Assembly (NCBI RefSeq): GCF_003860525.1
Contig: NZ_CP034161.1
Coordinates: forward strand, 1,798,001-1,862,000
Direction: 5' to 3'
Length of the DNA stretch: 64,000 nucleotides
Source: Epilithonimonas vandammei
GTDB lineage: Bacteria; Bacteroidota; Bacteroidia; Flavobacteriales; Weeksellaceae
In this document: positions 1-17,315 of the stretch, one piece after another
How positions within the stretch are numbered: the stretch's first letter is position 1
Layout: every line of letters begins with the position of its first letter
Made by a program: the position numbers and the translations under genes
Notes under the pieces: model-generated
Told to the model about the DNA's origin: nothing
Seen by the model: the letters and a program-made list of their open reading frames with translations, nothing else
The model's database searches: none

Positions 1-1
1 A

Positions 2-82
2 GTAGATCAGCGGCTTTACAGCAAATACAACCTTACTGAGGAAGAAATAGAATTTATAGAAGAATCAATAAAACCGATGTAA
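2..82 (+). CDS. C-terminal end of a type IIG-like DNA methyltransferase (partial)
   Basis: Only the last 26 residues are inside the window and the gene enters from the left edge. They contain a YNLTEEEIEFIEE segment. That matches the conserved tail (LYgLteeEi.iIe) closing many adenine-specific DNA methyltransferases of the Eco57I/type IIG restriction-modification kind, which methylate and sometimes cut DNA in one polypeptide. The stop lies 15 nt before the next gene, so it probably shares an operon with the helicase and the STAND nuclease downstream. The assignment rests on this short tail alone and no catalytic motif is visible. Confidence 0.55.
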   Translation, partial: VDQRLYSKYNLTEEEIEFIEESIKPM

Positions 83-97
83 AAATAAAAAACAACT

Positions 98-2246
98 TTG
101 GAAACAAAAACAGACCTAAGCGCATTAAACGATAAACAACGAGAAGCCGTAATTAGCGAAAAACAAAAGACTTTTGGTTTTAGCTGGAGCCGGCTCCGGA
201 AAAACAAAAACTTTACTTCAAAAACTTATTTATCTTATTGAAGAAAAAGGGGTAAGTCCGTCTAAAATTCTCGCTATTACATTTACAAAAAATGCGACGA
301 ATGAAATGTTGGATCGGCTGATTATTTCGGCAGATTCAACTGGAGAATACGAAAAACAACTTTTTGACAAAAGAAGAACAAAAATCGAGAAGGACAAAGA
401 ACGTTTTCTTCAACAAAAAAAACATAAATGGATTGATGGATTAACTGTTAAAACCTTCCACTCATTTTGTTATGGTGTTTTGAGAAATGATGGTGTAAAT
501 GAATTTGATAATAAATTCAGAATTATTGGAGATGAAAAAAAGGACGAGGAAGACGAGCTGTCAAAACATGTTGCACCTGAAACTGTTTTCGAAGTATTTC
601 ACAAAATATTAATAGAAAACTGTGAGAACACTGAATATTTACTAAAGCTAAAGCGGTATATTTTAGACTATATCGTAGATAAAATTCATCTTAAAAAAGA
701 TGATAATAACTTCTTTTCAAAAGATGGAAAACATTTTACCACTTTAGATGGCACAAAAGTTCGATCTAAGTCAGAACAGTTTATTGCCGATTGGTTTTAT
801 AGACATAGCATAAAATATGAGTATGAACCTGAGCTCAACGTAAAAGATTTTTCATTTCATCCAGATTTTTTCATTCCCGAAGCAAATTTGTATTTAGAAC
901 ACATCAGCGATTTAAGTTACCCTACCAAAGCAAAGGAAGAACAATTTCAGAAAGGTAAATTGCTTCTTGTAAAAACTTTCGATAGTATGACAAAGGATTC
1001 AGCACTTTTTAATCATACTTTGGATAAAGTTATTAAGAATAGATTGCCTTCGGATTATCAAAAAACTACTTTTCTAAATTATATAGAAGAATTCAACCAT
1101 TACCATTCTGATGTAAAGGATTTTATCCAACAGGTAATCAGAGTTACTGATATGATTAAAGTTGAAAACATTTCGATTGATACCGTTCTGCAAAGCGCAA
1201 TAAAAGATCAACACGAGAGAATTAGAAATTTTTATGAGTTGGCTATACCGATTGTGAAGGGCTTTATAGATTATTGTACAAATAAATCTTATTTAGATTT
1301 CGACGATTTAATTTCAAAAAGCACATCGTTATTTCTAAATCATGATGATGTAATTCAAAAATATCGAAATAAATTCGAATATATCTTGGTTGATGAATTT
1401 CAAGATGTAAACAATTTGCAGGTTGAATTAATAAAGCTTTTACTCACAAACAAAACACAACTTTTCTGCGTTGGTGATGATTGGCAAAGTATTTACGGTT
1501 TCAGAGGCTCTAATGTAAATTACATTGTTGAATTTGAAAAGCATTTTGATAATGCTGAAATTATAAAGCTAAATTTAAACTATCGAAGTACTCAGAATAT
1601 AGTTGGAGCAAGTAATGAAGTCATTAAACATAACAAATTTAAAGTTGATAAGGATGTTCAAGCTTCAAAAATGTCAGAACATAAAATTGTAGTTTTTTCA
1701 GGAAACAATCTTGAAGAAAATATCCAATTTTGTAGTGAAAAAGTGAACGAGCTACTGAAAGATGGTATTAATAATGATGAAATATTGTTTTTGTACAGGA
1801 GAAATAAAATGTTTAGTCCATATTTCAACTTTTTCAAGGGAGAAGGAACAAGAGTACAGTGGAAAACAATTCACGCTTCCAAAGGATTAGAAGCTAAGGT
1901 CGTTTTTATTATTGGTTTAACTGAAGGAAATGGTGGGTTTCCTGATATTTGGTTGGAAGACAGGATTTTCCAGATTATCAAAAAAGCTAACCATGATATT
2001 TTGATGGAAGAGGAAAGGCGACTGTTTTATGTTGCAATAACAAGAGCGAAAGACAAGTTATTTCTGATAACCGAAAAAGGAAATGAATCAAGTTTTCTAA
2101 AAGAAATCCCAGATGTTTTTACAGTAAGAACTGTCAATCAAATGACGTCAGTTGTAGAGAAGATTGAAACCTGCAATAAATGTTTTAGTCAGTTGGAAAA
2201 GTTATGGGTTGTTTGTCCTTATTGTGGAGAGATAATTGAAAAGTAA
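98..2246 (+). CDS. UvrD/Rep-like superfamily 1 helicase with nuclease-like insertion, frameshifted near its start
   Basis: This is an ATP-dependent DNA helicase of the UvrD/Rep class. From the in-frame TTG at 174 the protein has Walker A AGAGSGKT (residues 4-11), Walker B VDEFQD (D407, E408), the later helicase motifs (GDDWQSIYGFRG, LNYRST, IHASKGLEAKVV, VAITRAK) and a C-terminal zinc ribbon (C667/C670, C681/C684). Between the helicase motifs lies an insert with E201, HPDF (D231) and LEH (E242), resembling the Vsr/PD-(D/E)xK-like domain of some UvrD relatives. The expected Q motif (ALNDKQREAV) is encoded just upstream in another frame from a TTG at 98. A +1 shift near 165-173 is needed to join it, so the gene is either broken or misread there. 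The next gene starts 20 nt downstream. A role in defence is inferred from context. Confidence 0.8.
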
Positions 2247-2266
2247 TTCTCTAATATTATGTAAAA

Positions 2267-5200
2267 ATGCTATCCAGAAAGCGCATTAATCCCAATAGTT
2301 CTATTAGAAGTGGATATTCCTACGAAGATTTGTTCGTAATGAAGTTGTGTGCGGATTGGTTGAATAGTGCAGATAAATATTCTGAAATTAAAGTTCAATT
2401 TATACCAGAAGAAATAAGGGATACTCACTTTGCACTTGATGATATTGTTGCTCAACGAAAAAATGGTGACGCTGAATATTATCAAGTAAAACATGTTCAA
2501 AATCCTGATTTAGATTTATGGGATTCCGAAAAAATTGTAAGTAAGGGTCTTGAAAAATGGGTGAAATCATTTTTCGCACTGAAAAGTGCTAAAAAAGAAT
2601 GTGTTTTATTCACAAATGCAAAATTACACTGTTCTTTAGAAGAGTGTTATCGGGATTATAAATTTGATATTCAAAAATTAAAATCCTCCAATGTTGAGTT
2701 TTACAATTGTTTATTAGCAAATGGATATAGAGAAAAAGAGCTAAAGACTTTTTTTGAATCATTTGAATTTCGATTTAATCAACCTAACAAGAAAACATTA
2801 GAGGAAGAACTTCGGAATCATTTTTATCAAAAACTCAAAGTTACCGTCGCTGGTGTTGATAGGTTGCTTTTATATATTAATGAGCAAGGATCAGAAAAAG
2901 AACCAAAATCTATCACTCTTCAAGAGATACGATCTAAATTATCCTGGGACAATCCAAGACCACTAAATCAAAATTTTTTTGTCCCAGGAGACTTTGAATT
3001 TTTTGACAAAAAAACTCATGAGGATATTCTTGAAGATTTATCCAATGTTGATGGTGGGATCAAGGTTTTTACTGGCAAGCCAGGATCTGGTAAAAGTACT
3101 TATCTATCTAAGTTATACAACATCCTTCAGAAAAAGGGATATTTAGTTTTTAGACATCATTATCATCTAAATCCAAAAGATACAACTTTCTATGACAGAT
3201 TGAATTCAAAACGTGTCGTGGAAGGACTTAAAGCTGAATTCAAAAAACAGAAAAATTCTGTTTTAGATGGATTGGCAGAACAAAATACTGCGCAGATTCA
3301 ACTTAAAGTATTCATAGATACGCTTTCAAGCTATAGCGTAACTTCAAAAGTGCCTTTCATCTTAATTATAGATGGACTTGATCATGTAATACGAGAAGGA
3401 AATAGTCAAAGAGAACTTATTGATTTTCTTAACGAGATACTATTTCCTCAAACAGGATATTGGCTAATAATTGGAACACAGGAGATCGCTACGGATAGCT
3501 TCCCAAATGCAATCCATGATTATGCCCCAAAAGACAAATGGATTGAAATAAAAGGATTGAATCGCCAAAGTATTAAATCCATTATTAACAAAGCATTTCC
3601 TAAAAAAGAAAGGGATCATGGCGTTTATGACGAGAAAATTATATCTAAAATTTATGCCTTAACGCAAGGAAATCCATTGCACCTACGATATGTTCTTTCT
3701 GAAATCACAAATCAGAAAATGCATTTATCCTCGTACGACTTAGATAAGATACCTCCATATAACGGTGAAATTGAAGGTTATTACACAGCTCTCTGGAGAA
3801 GACTTTCGCCACTCTCAAAAACAATTTCTTTTGCATTAACTTCACTTGATTTTAAGCTACAGGAAGAACAACTTTTTTCATTATTTAATGATTTGGAAGT
3901 GAAACCGTATGAAATAGGTGATAGTTTTTTACAAATTCGTCACTTATTTAGATTTGATTTACAAGGTATTTCTACGTTTCACAATAGTTTTTTAGTATTC
4001 GTGCTTAATCAACCTGAGTTAGAAATGCAAAAAAGCATACTTTATAAAGTACTTGAGAACTGGTTAAGAAAAGATTCACAGAAAGAATTAGCATGGTCAG
4101 AATTACCTAAAATCGAATACTACTTAGGAAAACCAGAATTATTATTATCAATTAACAATGATTGGATAATAGATAATTATATTCAAGGTAAAAGTGAGCA
4201 ATTGATTGAAAGCACAATTTATATTGCTTCAAAAGCATCTTTTGAACTAAAGAGGTTTGATAAAGTTATATATTTTTCTACGGTTTTGGGTGCATTTAGG
4301 AATCGAGAATTCAATTTAGGTGATACTTTAGCAGAAATTTGGGTAACCGCATTTAAGATTAATAAGGGTTACAATATTCTATATCCAGATTTTTCAACTT
4401 TAACTGGCTACCAAATAAAAGAAATCTTAATAGCATTGCATAAGAATGGTATTGTTGATAAAATTCCTAATGAGGCAATTGATCGGATTAATGACTTATT
4501 ACAAAGCAATGACGAAGATTATCTAACATTAGTAAAATACTGGCTTGAAGTACTTTCGCAAATCGAAACTAAAAATATAAAAAGAGTTTTTGATTTCATA
4601 AAACAGTTTAGAAAAGAAAATAAATCTGGTGATTTATTCTTTCATTATATAGGTGAAATTCTTAATTCGAGTCAAGCTGAAGAAATAATTGAGGATATTG
4701 TAAAATTAAGATTAGATGCCGAGGAAAAAACAGCTGTTGGAAAGCGCCTTATGATCGATGATTTAGAGAAAAATAGATCACAATTTGAAAAGTATATTCT
4801 AAAATTATTGCCTAAGCATCACCACTTTAGAAGTCTCTATTGCAAATTGAGAAATAATACTTATACTACTGAAATTCAAATAATACCACTTAATGATTTT
4901 CCTTCCAAAGTAAGTTTTTATTCTTATGAAATAGATTCTGTTTCCGAATTATTTGAAAAAAATCTTTTCGCTTCTTTTATTAATGATGGTAGTTCCTCAT
5001 TTATAACCAACACAGACCTCGGAGAAGAAAAATGGCTAGCAGATTTGTATAATGCTGTCTTGGAGATGGGAGATATAATAAAACAACATCATAAAAACAA
5101 GCAAACGTTAAACGCAAAAATCGTATTAAAACCATTAATTGAATTACCAAATTTAGATTTTATAGAGCATAGAGATTTGTATGATTATCAGAGAGTTTCA

Positions 5201-8101
5201 ATTCGCAAAATAGTTGACAATGTCCTTTGGTTTGCATCAATTATCAACAAAACATTTGACAAGCTTTTAATATTGAGTTTTGATGATTTATGTTTTCTGA
5301 ATAATTGGAATTTCTACAACCGTCAATCTTTGCACAGTATAGTTAAATTGCCATCAATTAAAATTAATGAAAAAGATCTAAAGCATTTTATAGATTTAGA
5401 GGAACAATATACTTTAGAACATATAATACCCTTCAATGAAAAAGCTCAAAGATTAATAGAATTATCAATTTTGGCATTTAACAATGGCGACCACGAGAAA
5501 GCTCAACAGTTAAATACTAAATCAGCACAGAATATTTTAGCCTATAGTCACCATAAAGATATGTTGCTTTATCAAATTTTGGAAAGTATTAGTATTATTA
5601 ATTCTGCGAGTTCAAAGAGAGCGAAGGAATTCATAAGAAAAATATTTCCTTATGTCTTCAATATTGAAAAACTTACTGATGGTGATGAAACGAGGCACTT
5701 TATGGGCAAACTTTGTAGTTTATTACCTAAAATTGATCGTGAGTTGTTATTCAATCAATACTTTCAGTACATTGAACAACGCGAATATTACGATATAGAA
5801 AATTGCTTCGATGATATTCTTGCGTCATTAGATTATAAAGATCCAGTCGCAAAAGCTATTGGCGGAACTGCAATTGAACCACATTACTCAACTTTGAAAA
5901 AAAACTCAAAAGATGATCCCGCTGCGCATGTAGTCTTATCTGAATTACAAGAGAGATTTAATTATTCCGATAAACCTGAAGAGAAGGAATTCGAAAGAAC
6001 TAAGATTAATAGAGACCCTAATTTGAGCAATGTTTTACCAGAAAAATTAATCGGATATATCGAAAACAAATTGGGTCATAAAATAAAGTTTGTTGATTAC
6101 GAAGTTTCCAGTTTTTTATTAGATTGGTTTAAAGCTAAAGCAGATAGCAGATTAACTGAACAGGAAAAAAAGATTAAGATTATTAAAAAGATCCTTAATA
6201 ATGATTTTTCAAAAGTTTCAAGTGAATTACTTGATGGCATTTATCCTACAGCATATAAATTTGACAAAAATTTTGCATTTGATTGCATTTGTTGGGCTCA
6301 TTCAAACGGTGGCGGATGGTCTATGTTTACCCAAAACCTTGAAGAATCACGTAATAGATGGACTAGAGTAATGAGGGATTTTCCTGAAAGATTGGATGAA
6401 TTTTATTTCAAAACTGTATCAAATGTAGGTCTTCGATATGGTCGGGAAAAAGATTATTCTGTACCAATTCCCAACTCAGTGCAATTCTTTTATGACATTG
6501 GAGAAGTTTCAACTGCTGAAATAATAATAGAGCATTATTTAGATATGCTCCCCAATATATTTCCAACTGTAAGCTTAGAGATTCCTCAACATCTTACTAA
6601 TCCAGCCAAGATTTCAGATTTCGACATTTTACTCACGAGATTACATTGGATTAGTCCTATCGTAAGATCGCGAGCTGCAGAGAAAATTTCGGAATTATTA
6701 ATTCACGATGTTTCTGGAGAATATCATGACTGTTTTCTAAATTATTTATTCCATGAAGATTTAGAAAGTAGGGTTTGTGAAGGTTTATTGATTTTAATAA
6801 AATCACTTCAAAATAAATCTTCATCTTCATACAAGCATCTTAATCAATCAGTTTTAGATAATTTATTATCAATAAGATGTATGGCTACTGATTTAATCAT
6901 GATGAAGATTTCAGACTTATTAAATATCAAACTAAACTTTCATCATCCAATGGTTTTAACTCTTACTTCTGCTGAGACAAAATTATCAGAGGATAAGTTT
7001 ATGCAATTAGTAGGAAGAAATCTTCCAATGATATATGTTAATCATGTTGAATCATTTGAGTCCAAATTAAGTGGAAATCTAAAAGCATGGGAAATATGGT
7101 GTGGAATGTATGAAGAAGAATGTAAATTTAGAAATCTTAAGTACAACAAAAATCTGGATGAAGATTTTAAAAATTCTCATCATAATCATATGACTGGACG
7201 TTGTACAATTTTTGGAGATATTCTCAAATCAACTTTTTTTCGATTAATTGACTTTATTTATCAATTTGGTGAAATAAAATTCATTGATTTTTGGCAGCTC
7301 ACAATTAAAAACTTACCAGTAGATTATTCGATTTGGGGAATAGAAACTATTAAGAAGCCGAAGAATTGGCAAGAATTTACTGTAAATAAATTAGGAGAAA
7401 TAGAAAATTTATCACAAGTAATTTCATCTTTCTATGATAACAAGGATAAAAATGTTCCTATATATTATTACTACAGTTTTCCTCTAAATCATAATGATTC
7501 TAATTGTAATTCTCGTTTTTTTGAAATTGAATTTACACTATTTGGGTATGATGAACAATTTGACATCGATATTGAAGCTGAAGATATTTATCGGAAGCTT
7601 TCAAATTTTGCTTTTTGGTATAATCCAGTTACACAACCATTTCGCTTTGGCATTTTAGATTGTGAGCTAGCTTTTCATCAAACTAAAAGTCCACATAGTG
7701 GATTTTTCCCACTTGCCGTACCGATATCAAATCAAACAAATAATATGTGGCAATATTTTAGAATGAAAAATAATATTAATTTATTGTCAGAATCACTTAG
7801 TTCAGGACTAATCTTAGAGAATTCATCAGGGATTTTACAATATAAAAATAATGATAAAGTTGTAGCTTTTTATCATGACTTTTTGGATGATTTTAAAGAT
7901 GTATATCGCTATGATGAACCTTTCGGGTATGGTAATTTTTTGAATATTGATAAATCTTATTTAGATAAATATATTGAAAAAAAAGAGCTGGACATTGCAG
8001 TGTTAGTTAAGCAGACTTTAATAACTAAAAATTCTGCAAGTCGCCATGATGAGTATGAGAAGGAAATAAAATATCAAAAGATTTTGGTGAAAATTATTTG
8101 A
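2267..8101 (+). CDS. Giant Cap4/DUF4297-like nuclease fused to a STAND NTPase, candidate antiphage protein
   Basis: The product has 1944 residues. The N-terminus (about 15-130) resembles a Cap4/DUF4297-type PD-(D/E)xK DNA endonuclease: a SGYSYEDLF entry helix, LDDIV (D58/D59), then E70-Y-Y-Q73-V-K75. A STAND/NACHT-type P-loop NTPase follows, with Walker A GKPGSGKS (270-277) and Walker B ILIIDGLD (D369, D372). The remaining roughly 1400 residues look largely helical, carry no motif I can name, and may form the sensor region typical of STAND proteins. Nuclease-STAND-long sensor is the plan of the Avs antiviral proteins, which cut DNA after binding a phage protein, but I cannot place it in a known Avs type. 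It sits 20 nt after the helicase gene, probably in one transcript, and its DNA is markedly AT-rich, consistent with horizontal transfer. Confidence 0.75.
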   Translation: MLSRKRINPNSSIRSGYSYEDLFVMKLCADWLNSADKYSEIKVQFIPEEIRDTHFALDDIVAQRKNGDAEYYQVKHVQNPDLDLWDSEKIVSKGLEKWVKSFFALKSAKKECVLFTNAKLHCSLEECYRDYKFDIQKLKSSNVEFYNCLLANGYREKELKTFFESFEFRFNQPNKKTLEEELRNHFYQKLKVTVAGVDRLLLYINEQGSEKEPKSITLQEIRSKLSWDNPRPLNQNFFVPGDFEFFDKKTHEDILEDLSNVDGGIKVFTGKPGSGKSTYLSKLYNILQKKGYLVFRHHYHLNPKDTTFYDRLNSKRVVEGLKAEFKKQKNSVLDGLAEQNTAQIQLKVFIDTLSSYSVTSKVPFILIIDGLDHVIREGNSQRELIDFLNEILFPQTGYWLIIGTQEIATDSFPNAIHDYAPKDKWIEIKGLNRQSIKSIINKAFPKKERDHGVYDEKIISKIYALTQGNPLHLRYVLSEITNQKMHLSSYDLDKIPPYNGEIEGYYTALWRRLSPLSKTISFALTSLDFKLQEEQLFSLFNDLEVKPYEIGDSFLQIRHLFRFDLQGISTFHNSFLVFVLNQPELEMQKSILYKVLENWLRKDSQKELAWSELPKIEYYLGKPELLLSINNDWIIDNYIQGKSEQLIESTIYIASKASFELKRFDKVIYFSTVLGAFRNREFNLGDTLAEIWVTAFKINKGYNILYPDFSTLTGYQIKEILIALHKNGIVDKIPNEAIDRINDLLQSNDEDYLTLVKYWLEVLSQIETKNIKRVFDFIKQFRKENKSGDLFFHYIGEILNSSQAEEIIEDIVKLRLDAEEKTAVGKRLMIDDLEKNRSQFEKYILKLLPKHHHFRSLYCKLRNNTYTTEIQIIPLNDFPSKVSFYSYEIDSVSELFEKNLFASFINDGSSSFITNTDLGEEKWLADLYNAVLEMGDIIKQHHKNKQTLNAKIVLKPLIELPNLDFIEHRDLYDYQRVSIRKIVDNVLWFASIINKTFDKLLILSFDDLCFLNNWNFYNRQSLHSIVKLPSIKINEKDLKHFIDLEEQYTLEHIIPFNEKAQRLIELSILAFNNGDHEKAQQLNTKSAQNILAYSHHKDMLLYQILESISIINSASSKRAKEFIRKIFPYVFNIEKLTDGDETRHFMGKLCSLLPKIDRELLFNQYFQYIEQREYYDIENCFDDILASLDYKDPVAKAIGGTAIEPHYSTLKKNSKDDPAAHVVLSELQERFNYSDKPEEKEFERTKINRDPNLSNVLPEKLIGYIENKLGHKIKFVDYEVSSFLLDWFKAKADSRLTEQEKKIKIIKKILNNDFSKVSSELLDGIYPTAYKFDKNFAFDCICWAHSNGGGWSMFTQNLEESRNRWTRVMRDFPERLDEFYFKTVSNVGLRYGREKDYSVPIPNSVQFFYDIGEVSTAEIIIEHYLDMLPNIFPTVSLEIPQHLTNPAKISDFDILLTRLHWISPIVRSRAAEKISELLIHDVSGEYHDCFLNYLFHEDLESRVCEGLLILIKSLQNKSSSSYKHLNQSVLDNLLSIRCMATDLIMMKISDLLNIKLNFHHPMVLTLTSAETKLSEDKFMQLVGRNLPMIYVNHVESFESKLSGNLKAWEIWCGMYEEECKFRNLKYNKNLDEDFKNSHHNHMTGRCTIFGDILKSTFFRLIDFIYQFGEIKFIDFWQLTIKNLPVDYSIWGIETIKKPKNWQEFTVNKLGEIENLSQVISSFYDNKDKNVPIYYYYSFPLNHNDSNCNSRFFEIEFTLFGYDEQFDIDIEAEDIYRKLSNFAFWYNPVTQPFRFGILDCELAFHQTKSPHSGFFPLAVPISNQTNNMWQYFRMKNNINLLSESLSSGLILENSSGILQYKNNDKVVAFYHDFLDDFKDVYRYDEPFGYGNFLNIDKSYLDKYIEKKELDIAVLVKQTLITKNSASRHDEYEKEIKYQKILVKII

Positions 8102-8109
8102 TAATTTAA

Positions 8110-8394
8110 AAATTAGATTTACAAAGATTGGCTCAGAATGGAAATCTTTGGTTTGCAGGTGATTTAAATATTTCATTTTCTGGTCACCCCTACCCAAGTA
8201 AAGCTGTTCAGAATGATTTTAGAGATTTTTGTGAAGCTGAAGACCTTGAAATTATTACTCAAGACATCGCTAATTCCGCACTTCATATTGTTTTGAGTAA
8301 AAATTTATTGTTTGGAAAATCTGTAAAAATTATCGAAAAGCCAATTGAAAACCGGATATCCGATCACAACTTAATTCTGGCAGAAATTAATTAG
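8110..8394 (+). pseudogene. C-terminal remnant of an endonuclease/exonuclease/phosphatase family protein
   Basis: The frame opens after a stop at 8107 and has no ATG; a TTG at 8128 is the only plausible start. It encodes FAGDLNISFS near the front and SDHNLILAEIN at the end, which match the conserved GDfN and sDH.l..ei motifs of the last third of endonuclease/exonuclease/phosphatase domains. Full family members exceed 200 residues and begin with motifs absent here, so this is a truncated relic. It directly follows the giant nuclease gene, so an insertion or deletion at the edge of the defence island is a likely cause. Confidence 0.55.
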
Positions 8395-8572
8395 AATTTC
8401 AACATATGCAATGGAAATGATAAAATGACACCTCTTGCGAAAACCATGTTTGATAGTATTTTTGTTTCAAATCTATTATGTTCTTAACATTGGTAAAACG
8501 AGTTTGTTAAATTGGACTTAATTTAAAACTATGTTTGCTTGAAAGATTTACTTCAATAAAAATTTTGCATGT

Positions 8573-8595
8573 ATAATCGGATTATTTCCGATTAT
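8573..8595. promoter_or_regulatory. Inverted repeat upstream of hipBA
   Basis: Arms ataatcgg (8573-8580) and ccgattat (8588-8595) are perfect complements around a 7-nt centre. The element lies about 40 bp upstream of a TAAATTTG promoter box, so it could be a distal HipB operator or a small hairpin. Its function is inferred from position only. Confidence 0.35.
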
Positions 8596-8633
8596 CCATG
8601 TTCATATTTACAATATTATCAAAAATATTTTCG

Positions 8634-8641
8634 TAAATTTG
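8634..8641 (+). promoter_or_regulatory. Predicted -7 promoter box (TAAATTTG) of hipBA
   Basis: TAAATTTG matches the Bacteroidota -7 consensus TAnnTTTG and lies about 50 nt upstream of the hipB ATG. The gap from 8395 to 8692 holds this box, the two inverted repeats and no other recognisable gene. Confidence 0.5.
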
Positions 8642-8652
8642 TGATACAATGA

Positions 8653-8674
8653 TATTAATTGTATTCAATTAATA
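8653..8674. promoter_or_regulatory. Perfect palindromic operator candidate for HipB
   Basis: Arms tattaattg (8653-8661) and caattaata (8666-8674) are exact reverse complements around tatt. The site begins 11 nt after the TAAATTTG box, over the expected start of transcription and 18 nt before the hipB ATG. That is where an autoregulating antitoxin would bind. HipB-type repressors are known to bind paired palindromes upstream of their own operon; binding here is inferred. Confidence 0.5.
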
Positions 8675-8692
8675 CGTTTAAATACCCTTATA

Positions 8693-8998
8693 ATGTTACT
8701 TATATCACTTTCCAAAGCCCAAAAAACCTTAGTTCAAAATATCCGTGAACGAAGATTACAGATGGATCTTACTCAAGAAGGTTTAGCAGAAAGATCGGGC
8801 GTTCCTTTATCCACTTTGAGAAAATTTGAACAAACCGGAATGATTTCTTTAGAATCTTTTCTGAAAATTCTTTCTATTGTTGGTGGATTAGAAGAGATGA
8901 TTGAAGGATTAAAGCCAAATACACCTGCTTTTAAATCGATTGATGAAGTCATAAAAATTGACAAAAAAACCGTTAAAAAAAGAGGAAGTAAGAAATGA
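8693..8998 (+). CDS. hipB: HipB-like XRE-family antitoxin/repressor
   Basis: This 101-residue protein has an XRE/Cro helix-turn-helix at about residues 10-65 (VQNIRERRLQMDLTQEGLAE, then SGVPLSTLRKFEQTG). A lysine-rich tail follows (IDKKTVKKRGSKK). HipB antitoxins bind the HipA kinase, neutralise it, and repress the operon together with it. The stop overlaps the hipA start in an ATGA junction, indicating translational coupling. A palindrome lies just upstream of the gene. Identification is firm from the HTH and the neighbour. Confidence 0.85.
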   Translation: MLLISLSKAQKTLVQNIRERRLQMDLTQEGLAERSGVPLSTLRKFEQTGMISLESFLKILSIVGGLEEMIEGLKPNTPAFKSIDEVIKIDKKTVKKRGSKK

Positions 8999-10224
8999 GA
9001 ACATCAATCAAAGAGTTAAAAGTAGGATTGAATTTTGGATCAGAAATTCAAAAAGTAGGACGATTAGCGATTCGTGATGGAATCATCTATTTTGAATACG
9101 ACAATGCTTTTCTTGAAACTAATTTAGAAATTTCACCAATAAAACTTCCACTACAACGTGGAGTAATAGAACTTCCTAGAACACCTTTTGAAGGATTGGC
9201 AGGAGTTTTCAATGACAGTTTGCCCGACGGTTGGGGAAGATTACTTTTTGACAGGATGTTGAGAGCTGAAGGGATTTTACCGAATGAAGTTACTGCTTTA
9301 GATCGCTTAGCGTACGTTGGATTAAATGGAATGGGAGCTTTGGTTTATGAACCAGATGAAAGTCCTAACCATTACGATGAAAAAATTAACCTTGACGTTT
9401 TGGCTTCGCAAACTGAGCGAGTTTTGGAAGGCGAATCTGGAGAAGTCATCAATGAACTTTTGGCATTGAACGGATCTTCTGCCGGAGCGAGACCAAAAGC
9501 AATGATTGGTGTTGATTCAGAAAGAAAAAATATTTCGCACAGTGCAGGTGATTTGAAAGATGAATTTGAACATTGGATTGTGAAATTTCCGAACACGCAA
9601 GATGGTAATGATTCAGGAGTTGTTGAATATATTTACTCGATAATGGCAGAAAATGCAGGATTAGAAATGCCTGCAACACACTTATTTCCTTCACAAAAAG
9701 GTAGTGGATATTTTGCCGTAAAAAGATTTGACAGAGATAAAAATAAGCGCTTCCACATGCATACAGTGAGTGGATTGATCCATAGTAATTTCAGGTTTCC
9801 ATCTCATGATTATGAAGACTTGTTAGCAATAACCAATGTGATTACCAAAGATATTCGAGAGGTTGAAAAAATGTTTCGACTAGCAGTTTTCAATGTCATG
9901 GCACACAATCGAGACGACCATGCAAAAAATTTCAGCTTCTTAATGGATGGATTTGGCGAATGGAAATTGTCACCAGCTTACGATCTCACTTTTTCCAATG
10001 GACCAGGTGGAGAACAAAGTGCGATGGTGATGGGAGAAGGACGGAATATTAAAAGAAGACACCTTGAAAAATTAGGTTTGGAAGCAAAACTGTCAAAAGA
10101 GTTTATTGAAGAAGTTATCCAACAGACGAACTTGGCTTTGGGGAATTGGAAAAACTTGGCGAAGGAATACGATGTTAACAAAGAAAACATTCAGATGATT
10201 GAGAAACGTATTTCGAAGTTTTAA
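8995..10224 (+). CDS. hipA: HipA-family serine/threonine kinase toxin
   Basis: This 409-residue protein has the usual length for the HipA family. Visible parts are the N-terminal HipA_N-like domain (to about residue 120, ending in the ...VFNDSLPDGWGRLL block), a glycine-rich loop around LNGSSAGARPKAMIG, the lysine-containing strand FAVKRFDRD, the catalytic loop HNRDDHAKN (H304; catalytic Asp expected at D307) and the metal-binding LSPAYDLT (D330). HipA kinases phosphorylate a translation factor, GltX in E. coli, and halt growth. All catalytic motifs are present, so the toxin is probably active. It is translationally coupled to hipB. The pair sits at the end of the defence island and may stabilise it. 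Confidence 0.88.
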   Translation: MRTSIKELKVGLNFGSEIQKVGRLAIRDGIIYFEYDNAFLETNLEISPIKLPLQRGVIELPRTPFEGLAGVFNDSLPDGWGRLLFDRMLRAEGILPNEVTALDRLAYVGLNGMGALVYEPDESPNHYDEKINLDVLASQTERVLEGESGEVINELLALNGSSAGARPKAMIGVDSERKNISHSAGDLKDEFEHWIVKFPNTQDGNDSGVVEYIYSIMAENAGLEMPATHLFPSQKGSGYFAVKRFDRDKNKRFHMHTVSGLIHSNFRFPSHDYEDLLAITNVITKDIREVEKMFRLAVFNVMAHNRDDHAKNFSFLMDGFGEWKLSPAYDLTFSNGPGGEQSAMVMGEGRNIKRRHLEKLGLEAKLSKEFIEEVIQQTNLALGNWKNLAKEYDVNKENIQMIEKRISKF

Positions 10225-10718
10225 GGATTTCATAATATTTAAAGAGGAAAAATTGCTAATTTTGGAACTAATTCGTCGGGAAGTATTAATTTCAAAAGTT
10301 GGTCAGGAAGTGTCATCTAACTGATTATTAGGGTAATAGATACATTTTCTAGTACAAACGTTGTACAAAAGTGTTAAAATTTTCAATTATTTGACTACTC
10401 CAAAAATGAAAAACTCTTTATTCATGGTGCTTTTCGAAGACGAAAATGTTGACGGGATCTATACTCAAAAGATGTTGCAGCACCTTGGAAATGTACTACT
10501 TTAGTACTACGTAATTTAACGTAAAAGCCTATTGATAAAGAAAAGTTAAGATACTGTATCGGCAAATAAATATGCTTCCTCTAGTTTAATGCCCCATTTT
10601 TTTAAAAGCACAAAATTTGGAATAATTAATTGGAACTGAAATTTACTCAAAGGTTATCATTTAATAATCTCATTCTATAAAATAAGTATTATTATTGATC
10701 TAATTGGTATTAAACCAA
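10225..10718. other. 494-bp intergenic region with no recognised gene
   Basis: This AT-rich spacer lies between hipA and the convergent marR-type gene. A 32-codon open frame at 10406-10504 (beginning MKNSLFMVLFEDENVDG) has no clear ribosome-binding site or family match, and I do not call it a gene. No strong terminator hairpin was seen. The spacer probably marks the edge of the transferred island. Confidence 0.4.
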
Positions 10719-11369
10719 TTAACTAGCGGAAATTTCAAGAATTTCATCAATGTTAAAGCGTTTGTACTCAGAGTAAACGTGCGAGTGGAAATCATTCAGC
10801 TTTCTGAGTAATTCCAATAGTTCGGCTTTTTCATTATTTTCGAGTTTTCCGGCAAGAATTCGAGACGTCATATTCACTTTTTCAACGGAACGGTGGAAAT
10901 AATCTTCACCTTTTTCGGTGAGGTTCAAACGCTTACTTCTTTTATCTTCGCTGTCGTTCTTTTCTTCAATTAAGCCATATTCCAAAAGACGCTTGATGAT
11001 TTGAGTTCCGGTTTGTTTTTCGTGACCGTTTCTTTCGATTAACTGAATTTTAGTCAGATTAGGTTCGTCCTTCAATCGGTAAAGGTAGGTGAATTCTTCA
11101 TTGGCCAATTCAGGGAAATCATTCAAGCCCTTTCTAATCAGTTGTTTAGAATATCGTCCCAAAAGCAGAACCTGTTTGCAGATTTCATTTTCTGTAAAAG
11201 AAACCTGATGCTGTTCATTTTTAAAAAGTTTGGTTGGGCTCTCTTTTCGGTATTTTTTATCATTCAGCCAAAGACGGAAATCCTCAACATTAGAGTGAGG
11301 TTTATAAGCTTCGGAATTTTCAAATTCTTTAACCTGATGAAGCAGATCAATGAAAAAATCAGTATTCAT
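10719..11369 (-). CDS. MarR-family transcriptional regulator
   Basis: This 216-residue protein has a winged helix-turn-helix at about residues 70-165. LTKIQLIERNGHEKQTGTQIIKRLLEYGLIEE forms the recognition region, and the wing reads DSEDKRSKRLNLTEKGEDYF, the typical MarR wing with a D.R....LT.kG pattern. It has about 60 more N-terminal residues than a minimal MarR protein. MarR regulators repress genes and release DNA on binding small molecules. The target is unknown; the SDR gene about 100 bp downstream on the same strand is the nearest candidate. Confidence 0.8.
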   Translation of the reverse strand: MNTDFFIDLLHQVKEFENSEAYKPHSNVEDFRLWLNDKKYRKESPTKLFKNEQHQVSFTENEICKQVLLLGRYSKQLIRKGLNDFPELANEEFTYLYRLKDEPNLTKIQLIERNGHEKQTGTQIIKRLLEYGLIEEKNDSEDKRSKRLNLTEKGEDYFHRSVEKVNMTSRILAGKLENNEKAELLELLRKLNDFHSHVYSEYKRFNIDEILEISAS

Positions 11370-11468
11370 AGCGCAAATTTAATCTAAGTATTTTAAATAT
11401 TTTTTATAATCTAATAAAGAGGTAGAAGAATCTAAACCCTTCAATGCTCCAATTCTCAAACCCACCAA

Positions 11469-12167
11469 CTAAAGCTTAACACTTCCCATTCCGCCATCAA
11501 TTCCAAAAATCTGCCCTGTAATCCACGACGATTTATCTGAAACGAGGAAAGCTGTCATTTCCGCAATTTCTTCAGCCGTTCCCACTCTTTGCAGCGGATG
11601 TCTTTTCGCGGAAGCTTCTCTTTTCTCAGGCGTTGCCAAAAGTTGTGATGCCAAATTCGTGTCCGTTAAAGAAGGTGCAATCGCATTAACCCTGATTTTC
11701 TGAGCCGAAAATTCCGCCGCCAGACTTTTTGTAAGACCTTCCACCGCATTTTTACTCGCCGCAATCGAAGCGTGAAAAGGCATTCCCAGTTTTGCCGCCA
11801 CGGAACTGAAAAGCACAACGGACGCACTTTCCGACTTTTTGAGATTCGGCAACAGTTTCTGAATAATTTTTACCGCTCCCAAAACATTGATCTCAAAATC
11901 ATTCTTAAAATCATCCACAGAAAGTCGGTTAAACGGTTTTAAATTAATGCTTCCCGGTGCATAAACCAGCCCGTCCACGACTTCCGGAAAGCTGATTTCA
12001 TCTAAGTTTCCCGAAAGAATATCCATTGTGTGGAATTCAATATTCGGATGATTCAGTTCGTGATTTACCGTTCTGGAAATTCCGATGATTTTGTTTTGTT
12101 CTGCGATAATCTTTGCTGTTGCTAATCCGATTCCTTTTCCGCAACCGATGATGACGATATTTTTCAT
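11469..12167 (-). CDS. Short-chain dehydrogenase/reductase lacking the canonical catalytic tyrosine
   Basis: The frame is open back to 12218, but the natural start is the ATG at 12167, which gives MKNIVIIGCGKGIGLATA directly at the Rossmann nucleotide-binding loop (GxxxGIG). The product is about 232 residues with the SDR features NAPG-like YAPGSINL, VLFSSVAAKLG (catalytic serine region), and the C-terminal RVNAIAPSLTDT and ITGQIFGIDGGMGS. At the active site the usual YxxxK reads I-A-A-S-K (HASIAASKNAVEG): the lysine is kept but tyrosine is replaced by isoleucine. The enzyme may therefore not be a standard oxidoreductase. I recall relatives with the same HASIAA motif, so this may be a subfamily trait rather than a lesion. 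Confidence 0.8.
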   Translation of the reverse strand: MKNIVIIGCGKGIGLATAKIIAEQNKIIGISRTVNHELNHPNIEFHTMDILSGNLDEISFPEVVDGLVYAPGSINLKPFNRLSVDDFKNDFEINVLGAVKIIQKLLPNLKKSESASVVLFSSVAAKLGMPFHASIAASKNAVEGLTKSLAAEFSAQKIRVNAIAPSLTDTNLASQLLATPEKREASAKRHPLQRVGTAEEIAEMTAFLVSDKSSWITGQIFGIDGGMGSVKL

Positions 12168-12393
12168 AATTTTCATTTTTTTGAATATGAGGTTCACAAG
12201 GTTTTTATTTTGAGACACTTCGACAAGCTCAGTGTGACATCTCTAATACTATTCGTTTAATTATCTTTTAATTGTAAGGATGAGCTTAGTTTATGATGAT
12301 TCTGACGAAATAAAGTGTCTATTTACAAAGCCTTTTTGCTCTTTTAAAGCACTCTATCTTCAAACAATTCTTTTGTGTCTTTTGTGGTAAAAT

Positions 12394-12675
12394 TTATCTT
12401 TTAGAAATTTTATTATTGCTGATCACTCTTTGTCTGCTGCATTTAAAGCGTTTAATTTCTTCGCTTCTCTTTTTCAAATGTTTCTGGCTCACTCCCGAAT
12501 TCACTCTTTTTCGCCAAAGTTTGAAACTCGATTCCTTCAGTTCGGAACGCATCAGTTCAATGACTTCCGATTCACTGATTCCGAACTGAAAATGTATGGC
12601 TTCAAACGGCGTTCGGTCTTCCCACGCCATTTCAATGATTCTGTCGATTTGCTGTATGTTGAGGTTTTTATTCAT
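12394..12675 (-). CDS. TIGR03643/DUF2805-type small DNA-binding-like protein
   Basis: The product is about 93 residues from the ATG at 12675 (MNKNLNIQQIDRIIEMAWED); an in-frame start at 12702 would add nine residues. The sequence IIEMAWEDRTPFEAIHFQFGISESEVIELMR followed by WRKRV is characteristic of the TIGR03643/DUF2805 family. That family is predicted to contain a helix-turn-helix, is basic, and is often found next to cryptochrome/photolyase genes. Here it is about 250 bp downstream of one, on the same strand. The biochemical role is unknown. Confidence 0.75.
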   Translation of the reverse strand: MNKNLNIQQIDRIIEMAWEDRTPFEAIHFQFGISESEVIELMRSELKESSFKLWRKRVNSGVSQKHLKKRSEEIKRFKCSRQRVISNNKISKR

Positions 12676-12708
12676 TTTTAATTTTGATAAATATTCTATC
12701 AATTGCGT

Positions 12709-12785
12709 CGGGCTTTAGCCCGATGTTGAAGTTTAATTTACAAAAGGCTTTAGCCGAAATATATTTTTAAGTTTAGGCTAAAGCC
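12709..12785. repeat. Cluster of short GGCTTTAGCC palindromes
   Basis: Three related short inverted repeats occur within 80 bp: cgggctttagcccg (12709-12722), ggctttagcc (12746-12755) and ggctaaagcc (12776-12785). A similar gctttagccc motif recurs near 41050. They lie between the TIGR03643 gene and the photolyase gene and look like REP-type intergenic palindromes. Confidence 0.55.
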
Positions 12786-12924
12786 AATCATTCTATTCTT
12801 TTTGAAAGCTAATTTTTTTTTTGCTTTGCTGAGTGAAATAAAAGATTCGATGTAATCAAACGCCTTTGCGAACCTAAAAGCAGTTAGTATTTTAAAAAAA
12901 ATCTTTGCGAGCTTTGCGTTAAAA

Positions 12925-14235
12925 TCACAAACTTTCAATAAATTCCTTCGCCGTCTTAAAATGCTGTTTTCGTTTTTCTTCCGGCATTTTCTCCAGTGTT
13001 CTCAGCATCATTCCCAATCTTGGATTTTTAGCAAAAAAATCTTTATTGTCATTAATAAAATTCCAAAACAGCGCATCCCATTTTTCATTCCATTCTCCAT
13101 CAGGAAAATCACTCATTTTCTTAATATAATTGCTTCCGCTGATGTACGGTTTCGTGCTCATCTTCCCGCCGTCCGAAAAACTGCTCATTCCATACACATT
13201 CGGAACCATTACCCAATCGTAGGAATCGATAAACATTTCCATAAACCACTGATAGACTTCATCAGGATTGAACTGACAGAGATTCATAAAGTTGGCAAAA
13301 ATCATCAGTCGTTCGATGTGATACGCATACCCGGTTTTCAGGATTTTCTGAAGCGAACTGTCAATTGGGCGGATTCCTGTTTTGGCGGTGTAAAAAGATT
13401 CCGGAAGCTTTTTATCGTGTTTCCAATAATTTTTATTCCGCTGATATGTTCCCTGATACACATAAACCCCACGTACAAATTCGCGCCAACCCAAAATCTG
13501 GCGGACAAAACCTTCCAGAGAATTCACCGGAATATCGTTTTCTTTTGCAAACGAAATGGCTTTTTCCAACACATTTTCAGGTGTTAAAAGTCCGACATTC
13601 ATTAACGGAGAAAGCACGCTGTGATGCAGAAAATGCTCCTTTTCCACGATGCTGTCTTCGTAAACGCCAAATTCCAGAAAACGGTTTTCCAGAAACTGTT
13701 CCAGCCATTGTTTGGCTTCCTTAAAAGTAGTCGGATAGAGCTGTTCATCTGCAATCGTTCCGTAATTCTTGGCAAAATGATTTTCGGTGTAATCTTTTGC
13801 TTCCTCGTAAAATTCATTTTTTTTTGGAAAATGAATGGCGGGTGCTTTTTTATTTTTCGGATATTTTTTTCGGTTTTCCGTGTCGTAGGTCCATTTCCCG
13901 CCCAAGGGTTTTCCGCCTTTCATCAGAATATTTCGGGTGATTCTCTGCTGTTTGTAAAAATCAGTTTGATGATAGGCTTTTTTACCCTCAAAATAATCTT
14001 TCAGGTCATCTTTGGTATTGATGAAAAGCGGACTGTCTAAAATTTCGAGTGCTAATTTGGTTTCCTTTAATCTTTTTTCCAGCCAGTTGTCGCAAACATC
14101 CGTTGTTTTTATCGTTGTAAAATTTTCTTTTTCAAGCTTTTGAATTAAATTTCGGATGTCGCTGAATTTCGATGAACTTTCAATGTATTCAACTTCAAAA
14201 CCTGCCTTTTTTAGTTCACTTTCGTAAAATTTCAT
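12925..14235 (-). CDS. Cryptochrome/photolyase family protein, N-terminally truncated
   Basis: From the ATG at 14235 this encodes 436 residues of a PhrB-like cryptochrome/photolyase, including the FAD-binding helical core (PVNSLEGFVRQILGWREFVRG, GYAYHIERLMIFANFMNLC, DWVMVPNVYGMSSFSDGG). Members normally have about 60-70 more N-terminal residues forming the Rossmann fold. Here the frame continues upstream as FHKQKIAFHRAT and then hits TAA (14274-14272). Beyond the stop the sequence belongs to a different photolyase start (INIVWFTKDLRTRDSESL). Several cysteines expected for the iron-sulfur cluster of PhrB are absent in the region MSDFPDGEWNEKWDALFW. The gene has probably lost DNA repair function. 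Confidence 0.8.
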   Translation of the reverse strand: MKFYESELKKAGFEVEYIESSSKFSDIRNLIQKLEKENFTTIKTTDVCDNWLEKRLKETKLALEILDSPLFINTKDDLKDYFEGKKAYHQTDFYKQQRITRNILMKGGKPLGGKWTYDTENRKKYPKNKKAPAIHFPKKNEFYEEAKDYTENHFAKNYGTIADEQLYPTTFKEAKQWLEQFLENRFLEFGVYEDSIVEKEHFLHHSVLSPLMNVGLLTPENVLEKAISFAKENDIPVNSLEGFVRQILGWREFVRGVYVYQGTYQRNKNYWKHDKKLPESFYTAKTGIRPIDSSLQKILKTGYAYHIERLMIFANFMNLCQFNPDEVYQWFMEMFIDSYDWVMVPNVYGMSSFSDGGKMSTKPYISGSNYIKKMSDFPDGEWNEKWDALFWNFINDNKDFFAKNPRLGMMLRTLEKMPEEKRKQHFKTAKEFIESL

Positions 14236-14271
14236 TGTTGCGCGGTGAAACGCAATCTTCTGTTTGTGAAA

Positions 14272-14331
14272 TTATAAGGATTCTGAATCTCTCGTTCTTA
14301 AATCTTTGGTGAACCAGACAATGTTGATTTT
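14272..14331 (-). pseudogene. N-terminal remnant of a second photolyase, fused to the truncated one
   Basis: In the frame of the downstream photolyase, 14331-14275 encodes KINIVWFTKDLRTRDSESL and is followed by TAA and then FHKQKIAFHR. The KINIVWF.KDLR segment is the opening of an ordinary class I/DASH-type photolyase or cryptochrome (first beta strand and RDLR motif), not of the PhrB-like family that follows. The simplest reading is that two neighbouring photolyase genes were joined by an internal deletion, with a nonsense codon at the joint. Confidence 0.55.
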
Positions 14332-14453
14332 TTGTTTTTCCGGAATCTTTCGCTGCAATATTTTACTTCGTCCCAGTTTTTTTTCCACTTTTTCCGCCAG
14401 TTGAAAGGCAGTCCGCAGACTTCACAGATTTTTGACGGTAATCCAGAAGGCAT
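14298..14453 (-). CDS. DUF2256 small zinc-finger-like protein with one missing ligand
   Basis: This 51-residue frame from the ATG at 14453 begins MPSGLPSKICEVCGLPFNWR and continues KKWKKNWDEVKYCSERFRKN. The pattern CxxCgrPF.WRKKW...W.eVkYCSerCR is diagnostic of DUF2256, a short family usually encoded beside photolyase genes. Here the fourth expected cysteine is phenylalanine (CSERF), so zinc binding may be lost. Its 3' end overlaps the photolyase N-terminal remnant in another frame. The defect fits with decay of the whole locus. Confidence 0.75.
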   Translation of the reverse strand: MPSGLPSKICEVCGLPFNWRKKWKKNWDEVKYCSERFRKNKKSTLSGSPKI

Positions 14454-14491
14454 ATTTTTCATATTAACTTTAATTCAAATACAATTGTAAT

Positions 14492-14646
14492 ATTAGCAGG
14501 TCGCTCCTACGGAGCTTCCTTTTTACGGCTTTCTGTTTTCTATTAACAGTACATTCCTACGGAATTTTATAATGCTCCGATAGGAGCTGACTGTTAATAG
14601 CTAACATTTTTATAAGATATGAGCTCCGTAGGAGCGACCTGTTAAT
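14492..14646. repeat. Nested inverted repeat with CTCCTACGGAG arms
   Basis: Outer arms aggtcgctcctacggagct (14498-14516) and its exact complement (14622-14640) enclose inner arms ctattaacag (14540-14549) and ctgttaatag (14591-14600). Two further ctccgatagg/attcctacgga-like motifs lie inside. It is a compact 150-bp foldable unit in a gene-free spacer and shares its core with the palindromes at 16171-16341. The rest of the gap (14454-14763) shows no gene. Confidence 0.7.
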
Positions 14647-14763
14647 GATTCATTTATTCCCACAAAATCGTTTTCAAACCTTTCGGCTCTTTTAATAACC
14701 TGTAATTCATCAAAATCTTTTGTGACTTTTGACTCCGTCGAATCTTCGATTTGCGGTTAAATG

Positions 14764-16080: not shown

Positions 16081-16170
16081 TTTTAAATTTTGTCTGTCAA
16101 ATGTTTTTAACGCACTGTCGCAATGGTTATTTAATTGCTAAATGTTTTAAGTTCGCAAGGGTCTTGTATT

Positions 16171-16341: not shown

Positions 16342-16421
16342 CATTCTCCCGTTTTCTCTTTAATTTTCGCAACTGAAGTACCTAATTCTTTTAAATTTAA
16401 ATTTTGAATCGGCGAATTTCG

Positions 16422-16510: not shown

Positions 16511-16564
16511 ATAAATATTAGCTTATTAGAAACCAAAAGCAGTTGCCAATCGCTATTCATCAAC

Positions 16565-17218: not shown

Positions 17219-17237
17219 AATAGAATTTATTTATTGA

Positions 17238-17245: not shown

Positions 17246-17278
17246 GTAAATAATTTTACAATCAATTAAAATAAAGTA

Positions 17279-17286: not shown

Positions 17287-17315
17287 TACTATATAAACCA
17301 TTTAATTTTTGAATT

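What the first reader, a model, noticed from the sequence alone, without database searches (positions are those of the whole stretch)
2267..8101. A 1944-residue Cap4-like nuclease/STAND protein with an unassigned 1400-residue sensor region
Nuclease (D58/D59, E70, K75) and P-loop (K276) motifs are intact, so an active effector and switch are likely. The long C-terminal part shows no repeat or domain that I can name. It may recognise an unknown phage protein, as Avs proteins do.
Basis: partly seen in the sequence, partly recalled or inferred. Interest (0 to 1): 0.65.

Follow-up and report, generated by a model that had tools for sequence, protein, structure and literature searches.

The report
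Distant cousin of Avs3 phage sensor
This gene on a mobile DNA element encodes a large bacterial immune-type protein, a DNA-cutting enzyme joined to a molecular switch and a long sensor; the sensor, which looked unassignable, has the predicted shape of the known phage sensor Avs3, but the two defence catalogues searched do not cover this family, and in many relatives the protein is made from two separate genes.

Summary
The ORF is real (1944 aa, window 2267-8101), and the nuclease and P-loop calls hold. The nuclease is Cap4-type; its conserved set is D58/D59-Q73-K75, and E70 is not conserved. The NACHT/STAND switch is intact.

The 'unassigned' region is not foldless. A model of residues 745-1944 (pLDDT 83) gives a helical solenoid plus a C-terminal beta-rich domain. 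Its best PDB match, end to end, is Avs3 bound to phage terminase (8dgc; Foldseek E 8.9e-10, next unrelated hit 3.5e-3). Residues 1-640 hit the same entry (E 1.9e-14).

By sequence it is not Avs3: no Avs3a-model hit, no Avs3b partner, and no significant profile match of the sensor. It belongs to a separate family, sporadic over six phylum-level groups.

Unexpectedly, the family exists fused and split. In 14 of 14 split loci read, the last ~490 residues are a second gene in the same relative frame. The tree needs at least four fused/split changes at one boundary.

The gene is probably cargo of a ~27-kb integrative element with restriction genes.

Most likely it works like Avs3: a phage protein triggers oligomerisation and DNA cleavage. 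The trigger is unknown; the large terminase is the first candidate.

The parts
2267..8101 (+). CDS of the 1944-aa Cap4-type nuclease / NACHT-STAND / Avs3-fold sensor protein
   Evidence: ORF; end-to-end homologues
2267..2950 (+). Cap4-type (PD-(D/E)xK) nuclease domain, residues 1-228
   Evidence: Fold match to Cap4 7yib Z 17.2 over 206 residues; Pfam Cap4_nuclease in 4 of 9 relatives, best E 7.5e-4, not in the window protein itself; PADLOC Cap4 'Effector' in 19 of 20 at E up to 1, window protein E 0.0013
2438..2443 (+). Active-site residues D58, D59
   Evidence: Invariant in 20 of 20 sequences of A2
2483..2491 (+). Active-site motif Q73-V-K75
   Evidence: Invariant Q73 and K75; aligned to QIK of Cap4 7yib
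2984..4186 (+). NACHT/STAND NTPase with winged-helix region, residues ~240-640
   Evidence: Pfam NACHT 29.2 bits, above its 26.7 cut-off; AF2 mean pLDDT 85; fold matches to STAND and Apaf-1 structures
3074..3100 (+). Walker A GKPGSGKST, residues 270-278
   Evidence: G270, P272, G273, G275, K276, S277, T278 conserved
3362..3385 (+). Walker B region LIIDGLDH, residues 366-373
   Evidence: D369-H373 invariant in A2
4499..7336 (+). Helical solenoid, residues ~745-1690 (part of the sensor)
   Evidence: AF2 model, mean pLDDT 83, nearly all helix there
4517..5386 (+). Hypervariable part of the solenoid, residues 751-1040
   Evidence: No column conserved in 85% or more of 21 loci
5387..6586 (+). Conserved core of the sensor, residues 1041-1440, with HHKD (1095-1098) and TDGDETR (1137-1143)
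   Evidence: T1137 and T1142 in 20 of 21 loci, D1138 19, G1139 18, K1097 19, D1098 18, W1351 20
6596..6613 (+). Boundary, residues ~1444-1449, at which the split relatives divide into two genes
   Evidence: A subunits end at window residue 1443-1448 in 9 of 9 aligned; junctions of 14 split loci read
6611..8098 (+). C-terminal module, residues 1449-1944, equivalent to the separate B subunit of split relatives
   Evidence: Alignment A5; BLAST of B subunits to fused proteins
7409..8098 (+). C-terminal beta-rich domain, residues ~1715-1944
   Evidence: Strands in the AF2 model
10555..10569 (+). Probable right end of the integrative element: 15-bp copy of the mnmE 3' end
   Evidence: Exact match TGTATCGGCAAATAA (one search found no shared word of 16 or more there); the left copy ends mnmE beside a tyrosine integrase

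Best explanation
The gene encodes a single-protein, NLR-like defence protein that is built and most likely works like Avs3, but belongs to a separate, unnamed sister family. SHOWN here: a Cap4-type nuclease with an intact D-D/QxK site; a NACHT/STAND NTPase with intact Walker motifs; a ~1200-residue C-terminal stretch whose predicted fold matches the sensor half of Avs3; no hit of the Avs3 sequence model and no Avs3b partner; a family that is fused or split in two at one fixed boundary; a place on a probable integrative element with restriction genes. INFERRED: in the resting cell the sensor holds the protein inactive. During infection the solenoid and C-terminal module bind a phage protein made inside the cell (first candidate the large terminase subunit, because that is the ligand in the matching Avs3 structure). 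The NACHT module then oligomerises with ATP and brings the nuclease domains together, which cut DNA and stop the infection. In split relatives the B subunit would complete the sensor as a second polypeptide.
For: Nuclease: VIA Z 17.2 to Cap4 7yib (206 residues, 3.1 A), with HerA-DUF4297 and LmuA also listed; profile match to Cap4 in PDB sequences (E 0.0095); PADLOC Cap4 'Effector' in 19 of 20 members at E up to 1, best 3.2e-16. Switch: Pfam NACHT over its cut-off; STAND folds. Whole-protein likeness to Avs3: residues 1-640 best Foldseek hit 8dgc_B, E 1.9e-14 (next 3.8e-8); residues 745-1944 best hits 8dgc_A and _B, E 8.9e-10 and 1.2e-9 (next 3.5e-3); VIA Z 11.0 with 884 residues aligned, model 1-1200 on chain 766-2075. 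Sequence profiles: nuclease against Avs3a E 6.9e-9 and residues 12-820 against 9-844 of Avs3a E 1.4e-12. Context: Eco57I/ResIII-type and GmrSD-type restriction genes in the same element; HamA (Hachiman) directly upstream in one relative (L020). The Avs logic (nuclease effectors of Avs1-Avs4, terminase and portal recognition) is from passages of PMC12931631.
Against: No function was tested. The C-terminal match is a predicted model against one solved structure at 10% identity and 9.7 A rmsd, TM-score by query length only 0.43 (0.32 for residues 1-640); for helical repeats the tool warns that Z below about 13 can be a common arrangement. Profile comparison of the C-terminal region with Avs3a is not significant (E 0.037; reversed control 0.29). 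The NACHT domain is nearer to Avs1b-type proteins (E 4.7e-21) than to Avs3a (2.6e-5), so the protein is not simply a drifted Avs3. Terminase as trigger rests on fold analogy alone; other Avs types see other proteins (portal, Ksap1, JADA). Oligomerisation is untested.
Confidence: 0.7

Rival explanations
1. It is an ordinary divergent Avs3 (AVAST type 3) that the models miss.
For: Same predicted fold along the whole length and an Avs3-like nuclease by profile (E 6.9e-9).
Against: The NCBIfam Avs3a model has no hit in G000 or in the protein at E up to 1, while it matches 10 of 385 Bacteroidota genomes, 4 over the cut-off and some of the rest partial. Avs3b is absent from G000 and from five other genomes with family members, but present in 4 of 4 Avs3a genomes searched, 3 over its cut-off. 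The NACHT sequence is nearer Avs1b. Members occur as two-gene versions.
Confidence: 0.15
2. It is a cell-death or DNA-damage switch, or a defence against plasmids, whose trigger is not a phage protein.
For: Several relatives lie on plasmids, some near umuDC-type genes; the element carries HipA-type genes.
Against: Fold likeness to a terminase-binding sensor; restriction and Hachiman-type neighbours; no shared partner gene among the 12 Bacteroidota loci compared.
Confidence: 0.1
3. The helical C-terminal region is a generic repeat scaffold, and the Avs3 match reflects only common solenoid shape; the ligand and geometry are unrelated to Avs3.
For: 10% identity, 9.7 A rmsd, TM 0.43, C-terminal profile E 0.037.
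Against: The match spans solenoid and beta-rich domain end to end and stands over six orders of magnitude in E-value above the unrelated solenoids; the separate model of the N-terminal half picks the same entry. Weak profile sub-alignments to Avs3a lie on one collinear diagonal (1005-1188 to 1064-1243; 1449-1501 to 1558-1609; 1854-1917 to 1998-2060), though none is significant alone.
Confidence: 0.15

Closest known systems
Avs3 / AVAST type 3 (NCBIfam Avs3a NF041816 with Avs3b NF041817; PDB 8dgc)
   Same: Cap4-type nuclease, STAND NTPase, ~2000 aa; predicted fold matches along the whole length; nuclease profile E 6.9e-9.
   Different: No hit to the Avs3a model; no Avs3b; sensor sequence not significantly similar; NACHT of another subgroup; exists also as a two-gene version.
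Avs1b / AVAST type 1 (NF041810, PDLC02159)
   Same: Closest catalogued NACHT/winged-helix by sequence (NCBIfam 1e-10; PADLOC 4.6e-16 on residues 255-586; profile E 4.7e-21).
   Different: 39.5 bits against a cut-off of 1500; Cap4-type nuclease at the N terminus, where the Avs1b record is named a protease; sensor not significantly similar (E 0.082, reversed 0.24).
Cap4 of CBASS (7yib, 7yia, 6wam) and HerA-DUF4297 (9c1m)
   Same: Nuclease fold and QxK motif.
   Different: No SAVED-domain hit and no CD-NTase among the 14 neighbours scanned; here the nuclease is fused to a NACHT switch.
bNACHT25-type bacterial NLR-related proteins (clade 6)
   Same: N-terminal PD-(D/E)XK nuclease plus NACHT (PMC12169576, passages).
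   Different: They carry a C-terminal NCH1 helical domain; here ~1300 residues with an Avs3-like fold. No sequence comparison with bNACHT25 was made.
Unnamed sister families seen here: L057/L058/L059 (2048-2161 aa), L087 (2005 aa), L088 (1887 aa)
   Same: For the L057 group NACHT E 9.6e-26 and C-terminal profile E 2.5e-10 (global 4e-17; reversed controls 0.45 and 0.022); L087 BLAST match over residues 16-1190 to L020.
   Different: Separate branches in the tree, some of them long and unsure; weaker nuclease similarity (E 2.9e-4).

Membership tests
STAND/NACHT NTPase | NACHT domain with Walker A and B | tested here: met
   PF05729 29.2 bits, cut-off 26.7; Walker residues conserved
Cap4-type nuclease | PD-(D/E)xK-type fold with D...QxK site | tested here: met
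   7yib Z 17.2, 206 residues, 3.1 A; D58/D59/Q73/K75 invariant
Avs3 (AVAST type 3) | Match to the curated Avs3a model (cut-off 2800 bits) | tested here: not met
   No match in G000; none at E up to 1 for the protein
Avs3 (AVAST type 3) | Avs3b partner gene | tested here: not met
   Absent from G000; present in 4 of 4 Avs3a genomes searched, 3 over the cut-off
Avs3 (AVAST type 3) | Avs3 overall fold including the sensor | tested here: met
   Foldseek E 1.9e-14 and 8.9e-10; VIA Z 11.0 over 884 residues, 9.7 A; predicted models only
Avs3 (AVAST type 3) | Recognition of phage large terminase | not testable with these tools
   Needs co-expression or a complex structure
Avs1 (AVAST type 1) | Avs1b model at its cut-off (1500 bits) | tested here: not met
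   39.5 bits, residues 349-581 only
Avs2, Avs4, Avs5 | Curated NCBIfam models NF041813, NF041815, NF041814 | tested here: not met
   No hit of the protein at E up to 1; no match in G000 (in 106 and 108 only two first-look candidates of G000 were scored)
CBASS Cap4 | SAVED domain and CD-NTase neighbour | tested here: not met
   PADLOC SAVED_PDDEXK matches only residues 11-79 and Pfam shows no SAVED hit; no CD-NTase among the 14 neighbour proteins scanned
[quoted passage not shown]
   No NCH1 model or sequence was looked up

The most novel reading that the evidence does not exclude
A further AVAST type, beyond Avs1-Avs5, with a two-part sensor: the last ~490 residues (a helical stretch plus a beta-rich domain) form a separable reader subunit that has been fused and split repeatedly at one boundary. 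In split systems it may be exchanged or recruited as its own polypeptide to set the ligand, making these bacterial NLR-like proteins two-component receptors.
Probability: 0.3. Interest if true: 0.7.

Novelty: new variant of a known kind. Interest (0 to 1): 0.5.

Why it matters
It turns an 'unassigned sensor' into a testable prediction (an Avs3-like ligand, first candidate the large terminase) and suggests that the Avs3 plan is wider than the catalogued types: the Avs models met here in NCBIfam and PADLOC are of Avs1-Avs5, while members of this family on plasmids are mostly labelled 'ATP-binding protein'. The repeated fusion and fission at one boundary marks a natural cut for testing which part of an NLR-like sensor reads the ligand.

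Tried and rejected
Conserved operon partner: a BLAST of ORFs of 80 aa or more from window 1-20000 against those of 12 loci around Bacteroidota relatives found nothing shared except the protein itself, so the upstream UvrD-like helicase is not a conserved partner there; neighbours of the proteobacterial relatives were not compared in this way. Programmed -1 frameshifting between the split genes: a heptamer of the form XXXYYYZ (Y = A or T) occurs within 150 nt of the A stop in 3 of 14 loci, at differing places and in one of the three out of phase, so plain start/stop overlap is preferred. Type I restriction context of relatives, first guessed from ORF sizes: rejected after Pfam; L020 has HamA (E 1.3e-61) with a DEAD/ResIII helicase, L021 and L022 carry DEAD/ResIII helicases, L018's two neighbours neither. 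Metallo-beta-lactamase beside the Avs1b-type L026: no Pfam hit at E 1e-4. B subunit as Avs3b: no (E 0.067). Relatives in phages or viral contigs: none in 'phages' or in one viral-contig scan (600 stretches matched a pattern, none a relative). The sensor in predicted viral proteins: none at E under 0.001. Tenascin and pentatricopeptide PDB sequence hits are taken as chance. Global profile alignments are not reliable at low scores: one reversed control reached E 0.004 (against Avs2). PDB 9n00 ('AAA family ATPase', 1523 aa) matches the nuclease by profile (E 0.0024, 0.0011); no held paper names it. Searches for this family or an 'Avs6' in print found nothing relevant (open-licence papers only, listings seen; the original AVAST and bNACHT papers are not held, and are recalled). 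PADLOC Avs2 models PDLC02161, 02163 and 02166: the one hit (E 9.7e-4) lies elsewhere in the genome.

Full report
OBSERVATION. The ORF at 2267-8101 is open for 1944 codons from an ATG. It is a real gene: five unbroken relatives from other genomes of the same family cover it end to end at 45-58% identity, a Pedobacter copy at 39%, and whole-gene dN/dS is 0.10-0.22 in 5 of 5 pairs compared. A search of 320 genomes of the family gave matches in 12; only up to two first-look candidates per genome were scored, so this is a lower bound. Nine of the 12, own included, are this family; three (G025, G097, G166) match only around the NACHT region. Of the nine, six (own included) are intact, one is interrupted by an insertion with an integrase-core transposase (G258), one is broken into 557- and 1390-aa frames (G030), and one has an in-frame stop near a contig end (G095). 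No other genome of the window's genus matched. A profile of residues 745-1944 matched 3 of 385 Bacteroidota genomes drawn evenly: the window's own, and two with short matches (about 105-126 profile positions) in other large proteins. Carriage is sporadic.

EFFECTOR. AlphaFold2 of residues 1-640 gave mean pLDDT 85 and pTM 0.68. VIA-align places the nuclease on Enterobacter cloacae Cap4 7yib at Z 17.2, 3.1 A, 206 residues; it also lists the K74A entry 7yia, HerA-DUF4297 and LmuA. A nuclease-only profile aligns QVKF with QIKF of 7yib (E 0.0095). Pfam's Cap4_nuclease hits 4 of 9 relatives, not the window protein itself.

SWITCH. Pfam NACHT passes its cut-off. By profile the domain is nearest to the L057 group (E 9.6e-26) and to Avs1b-type proteins (E 4.7e-21), then far behind to Avs3a (2.6e-5) and Avs2 (5.3e-5). 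Avs1b-type here means L026-L028; of these L026 was tested and hit NCBIfam Avs1b at 876 bits, under its cut-off of 1500.

SENSOR. AlphaFold2 of residues 745-1944, with 30 rows, gave mean pLDDT 83 and pTM 0.76: helices to about residue 1690, then a beta-rich domain. Foldseek against the PDB returned two rows at E under 0.001, both Avs3 bound to PhiV-1 terminase (8dgc_A 8.9e-10, 8dgc_B 1.2e-9; TM by query length 0.43 and 0.39); the next, unrelated, was 3.5e-3. VIA-align gave Z 11.0 with 884 residues aligned, model 1-1200 on chain 766-2075, rmsd 9.7 A, 10% identity; the next row was Z 8.7 over 117 residues. The tool's note that helical models can reach Z 13 by common arrangement applies. The full span, the gap to the other solenoids and the same top entry for the N-terminal half (E 1.9e-14, TM 0.32) are why I accept it. 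By sequence the sensor is not significantly similar to Avs3a (E 0.037, reversed control 0.29), although three weak pieces lie on one diagonal. At a threshold of 85% of 21 loci, conserved columns in the sensor lie mainly in 1041-1440 (HHKD, TDGDETR, W1351) and 1449-1700, and none in 751-1040. The C-terminal stretch 1701-1944 has the highest or second-highest dN/dS of the regions in four of five pairs and the third in the fifth; region 641-750 gave no estimate in three pairs. In the three pairs among L031, L044 and L053, residues 1501-1600 differ by 22-25% in nucleotides against 1-19% in the other blocks, which looks like local exchange; the other three pairs do not show it there.

FUSED AND SPLIT FORMS. 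Of 28 loci placed on a tree, plasmid records included, 15 are fused and 13 split; a fourteenth split locus (L054) was left out because its A gene is broken. In split loci A (1416-1481 aa) ends at window residue 1443-1448 (9 of 9 aligned) and B (455-499 aa; L041's longest frame 589) begins at the homologous next residues. The relative frame is the same in 14 of 14, mostly with overlaps of 1-19 nt; the longest frames of L041 and L055 overlap more, and L032's B is annotated from a later start. The tree forces at least four fused/split changes by starred branches, bootstrap range 4-4, against a shuffled mean of 9.5; it carries warnings of long branches (L056 among the members) and of uneven amino-acid make-up in 18 rows. 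Members on the tree come from Bacteroidota, Pseudomonadota, Nitrospirota, Chloroflexota, Kiritimatiellota and Candidatus Melainabacteria; the sister group also from Planctomycetota. In plasmids 46 records match, none covering 80% of the query in one place; many of the 40 listed match only around the NACHT part.

CONTEXT. Upstream of the window the genome carries mnmE, then directly a tyrosine integrase (read by eye from the ORFs), and by Pfam a VapE-like protein, a Toprim protein, NikA-like and relaxase genes, an Eco57I/ResIII restriction enzyme and a GmrSD-type enzyme. A 15-bp exact copy of the mnmE 3' end lies at window 10555-10569, after the HipB/HipA-like pair at 8693-10224. The repeat alone is weak evidence (an 18-mer with up to 3 mismatches is expected 0.29 times in the window; no shared word of 16 or more was found there; no tRNA), but it is where the integrase predicts an end. 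The element would be about 27 kb (genome ~1781373 to 1808569).

KNOWN KIND OR NOT. NCBIfam has no Avs2-Avs5 hit for the protein at E up to 1, and the models of Avs2, Avs3a, Avs4 and Avs5 have no match in this genome. Avs3b is absent here and in five other genomes holding members, and present in 4 of 4 Avs3a genomes searched. PADLOC recognises mainly Avs1b-like NACHT and Cap4-like nuclease pieces. So it works, most likely, like Avs3, but is not a member by the tested sequence criteria. Passages of PMC12931631 give the Avs1-Avs4 nuclease mode and known ligands; passages of PMC12169576 give the bNACHT25 architecture. No held paper describing this family was found (listings seen).

VERDICT. A real, intact gene of a distinct Avs3-like family; new variant of a known kind. 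Predicted trigger: a phage protein, terminase first. The split form is the most interesting feature.

Noticed in passing
window 174-2246 and L002 15100-15200: A UvrD-like helicase gene lies 20 nt upstream of the STAND gene. By eye its reading frame breaks between a Q-motif-like start and Walker A, so it may be inactive or start at an alternative codon; an insert resembling a nuclease domain was judged by eye only.
   Followed up: partly
window 8128-8394: An 88-aa ORF ending in SDHNLILAEI looks by eye like the tail of an endonuclease/exonuclease/phosphatase; Pfam gives nothing significant. Probably a remnant.
   Followed up: partly
window 8693-10224: HipB/HipA-like pair at the right end of the element; a second HipA-like gene lies at L002 19-1266 nearer the left end.
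   Followed up: partly
L057 8620-14766, L058 405-6890, L059 8263-14415: A second family (2048-2161 aa) with NACHT and sensor related to this one; L057 and L058 hit only Avs1b-like NACHT among Avs models in PADLOC and NCBIfam, and L057 has no PDB sequence match to Avs3.
   Followed up: partly
L087 4443-10460; L088 5320-10983: Further Bacteroidota proteins of 2005 and 1887 aa sharing part of the conserved sensor core; possible additional Avs3-like types.
   Followed up: partly
G613:C4:182361-185261 (L089): A 978-aa open frame matches only the C-terminal part (1118-2082) of Avs3a, so Avs3 itself may have split or broken copies.
   Followed up: no
L019 6090-13253: Relative interrupted near residue 195 by an insertion carrying an integrase-core transposase.
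   Followed up: partly
L032 11470-12846; L033 11404-12846: The B subunit is annotated in these plasmid records as 'multidrug DMT transporter permease', in L034 and L036 as hypothetical protein; the alignment to the sensor module argues against a transporter.
   Followed up: yes
window residues 1095-1098 and 1137-1143 (5549-5560, 5675-5695): HHKD and TDGDETR motifs in the sensor are nearly invariant across the loci although the solenoid before them varies; role unknown.
   Followed up: no
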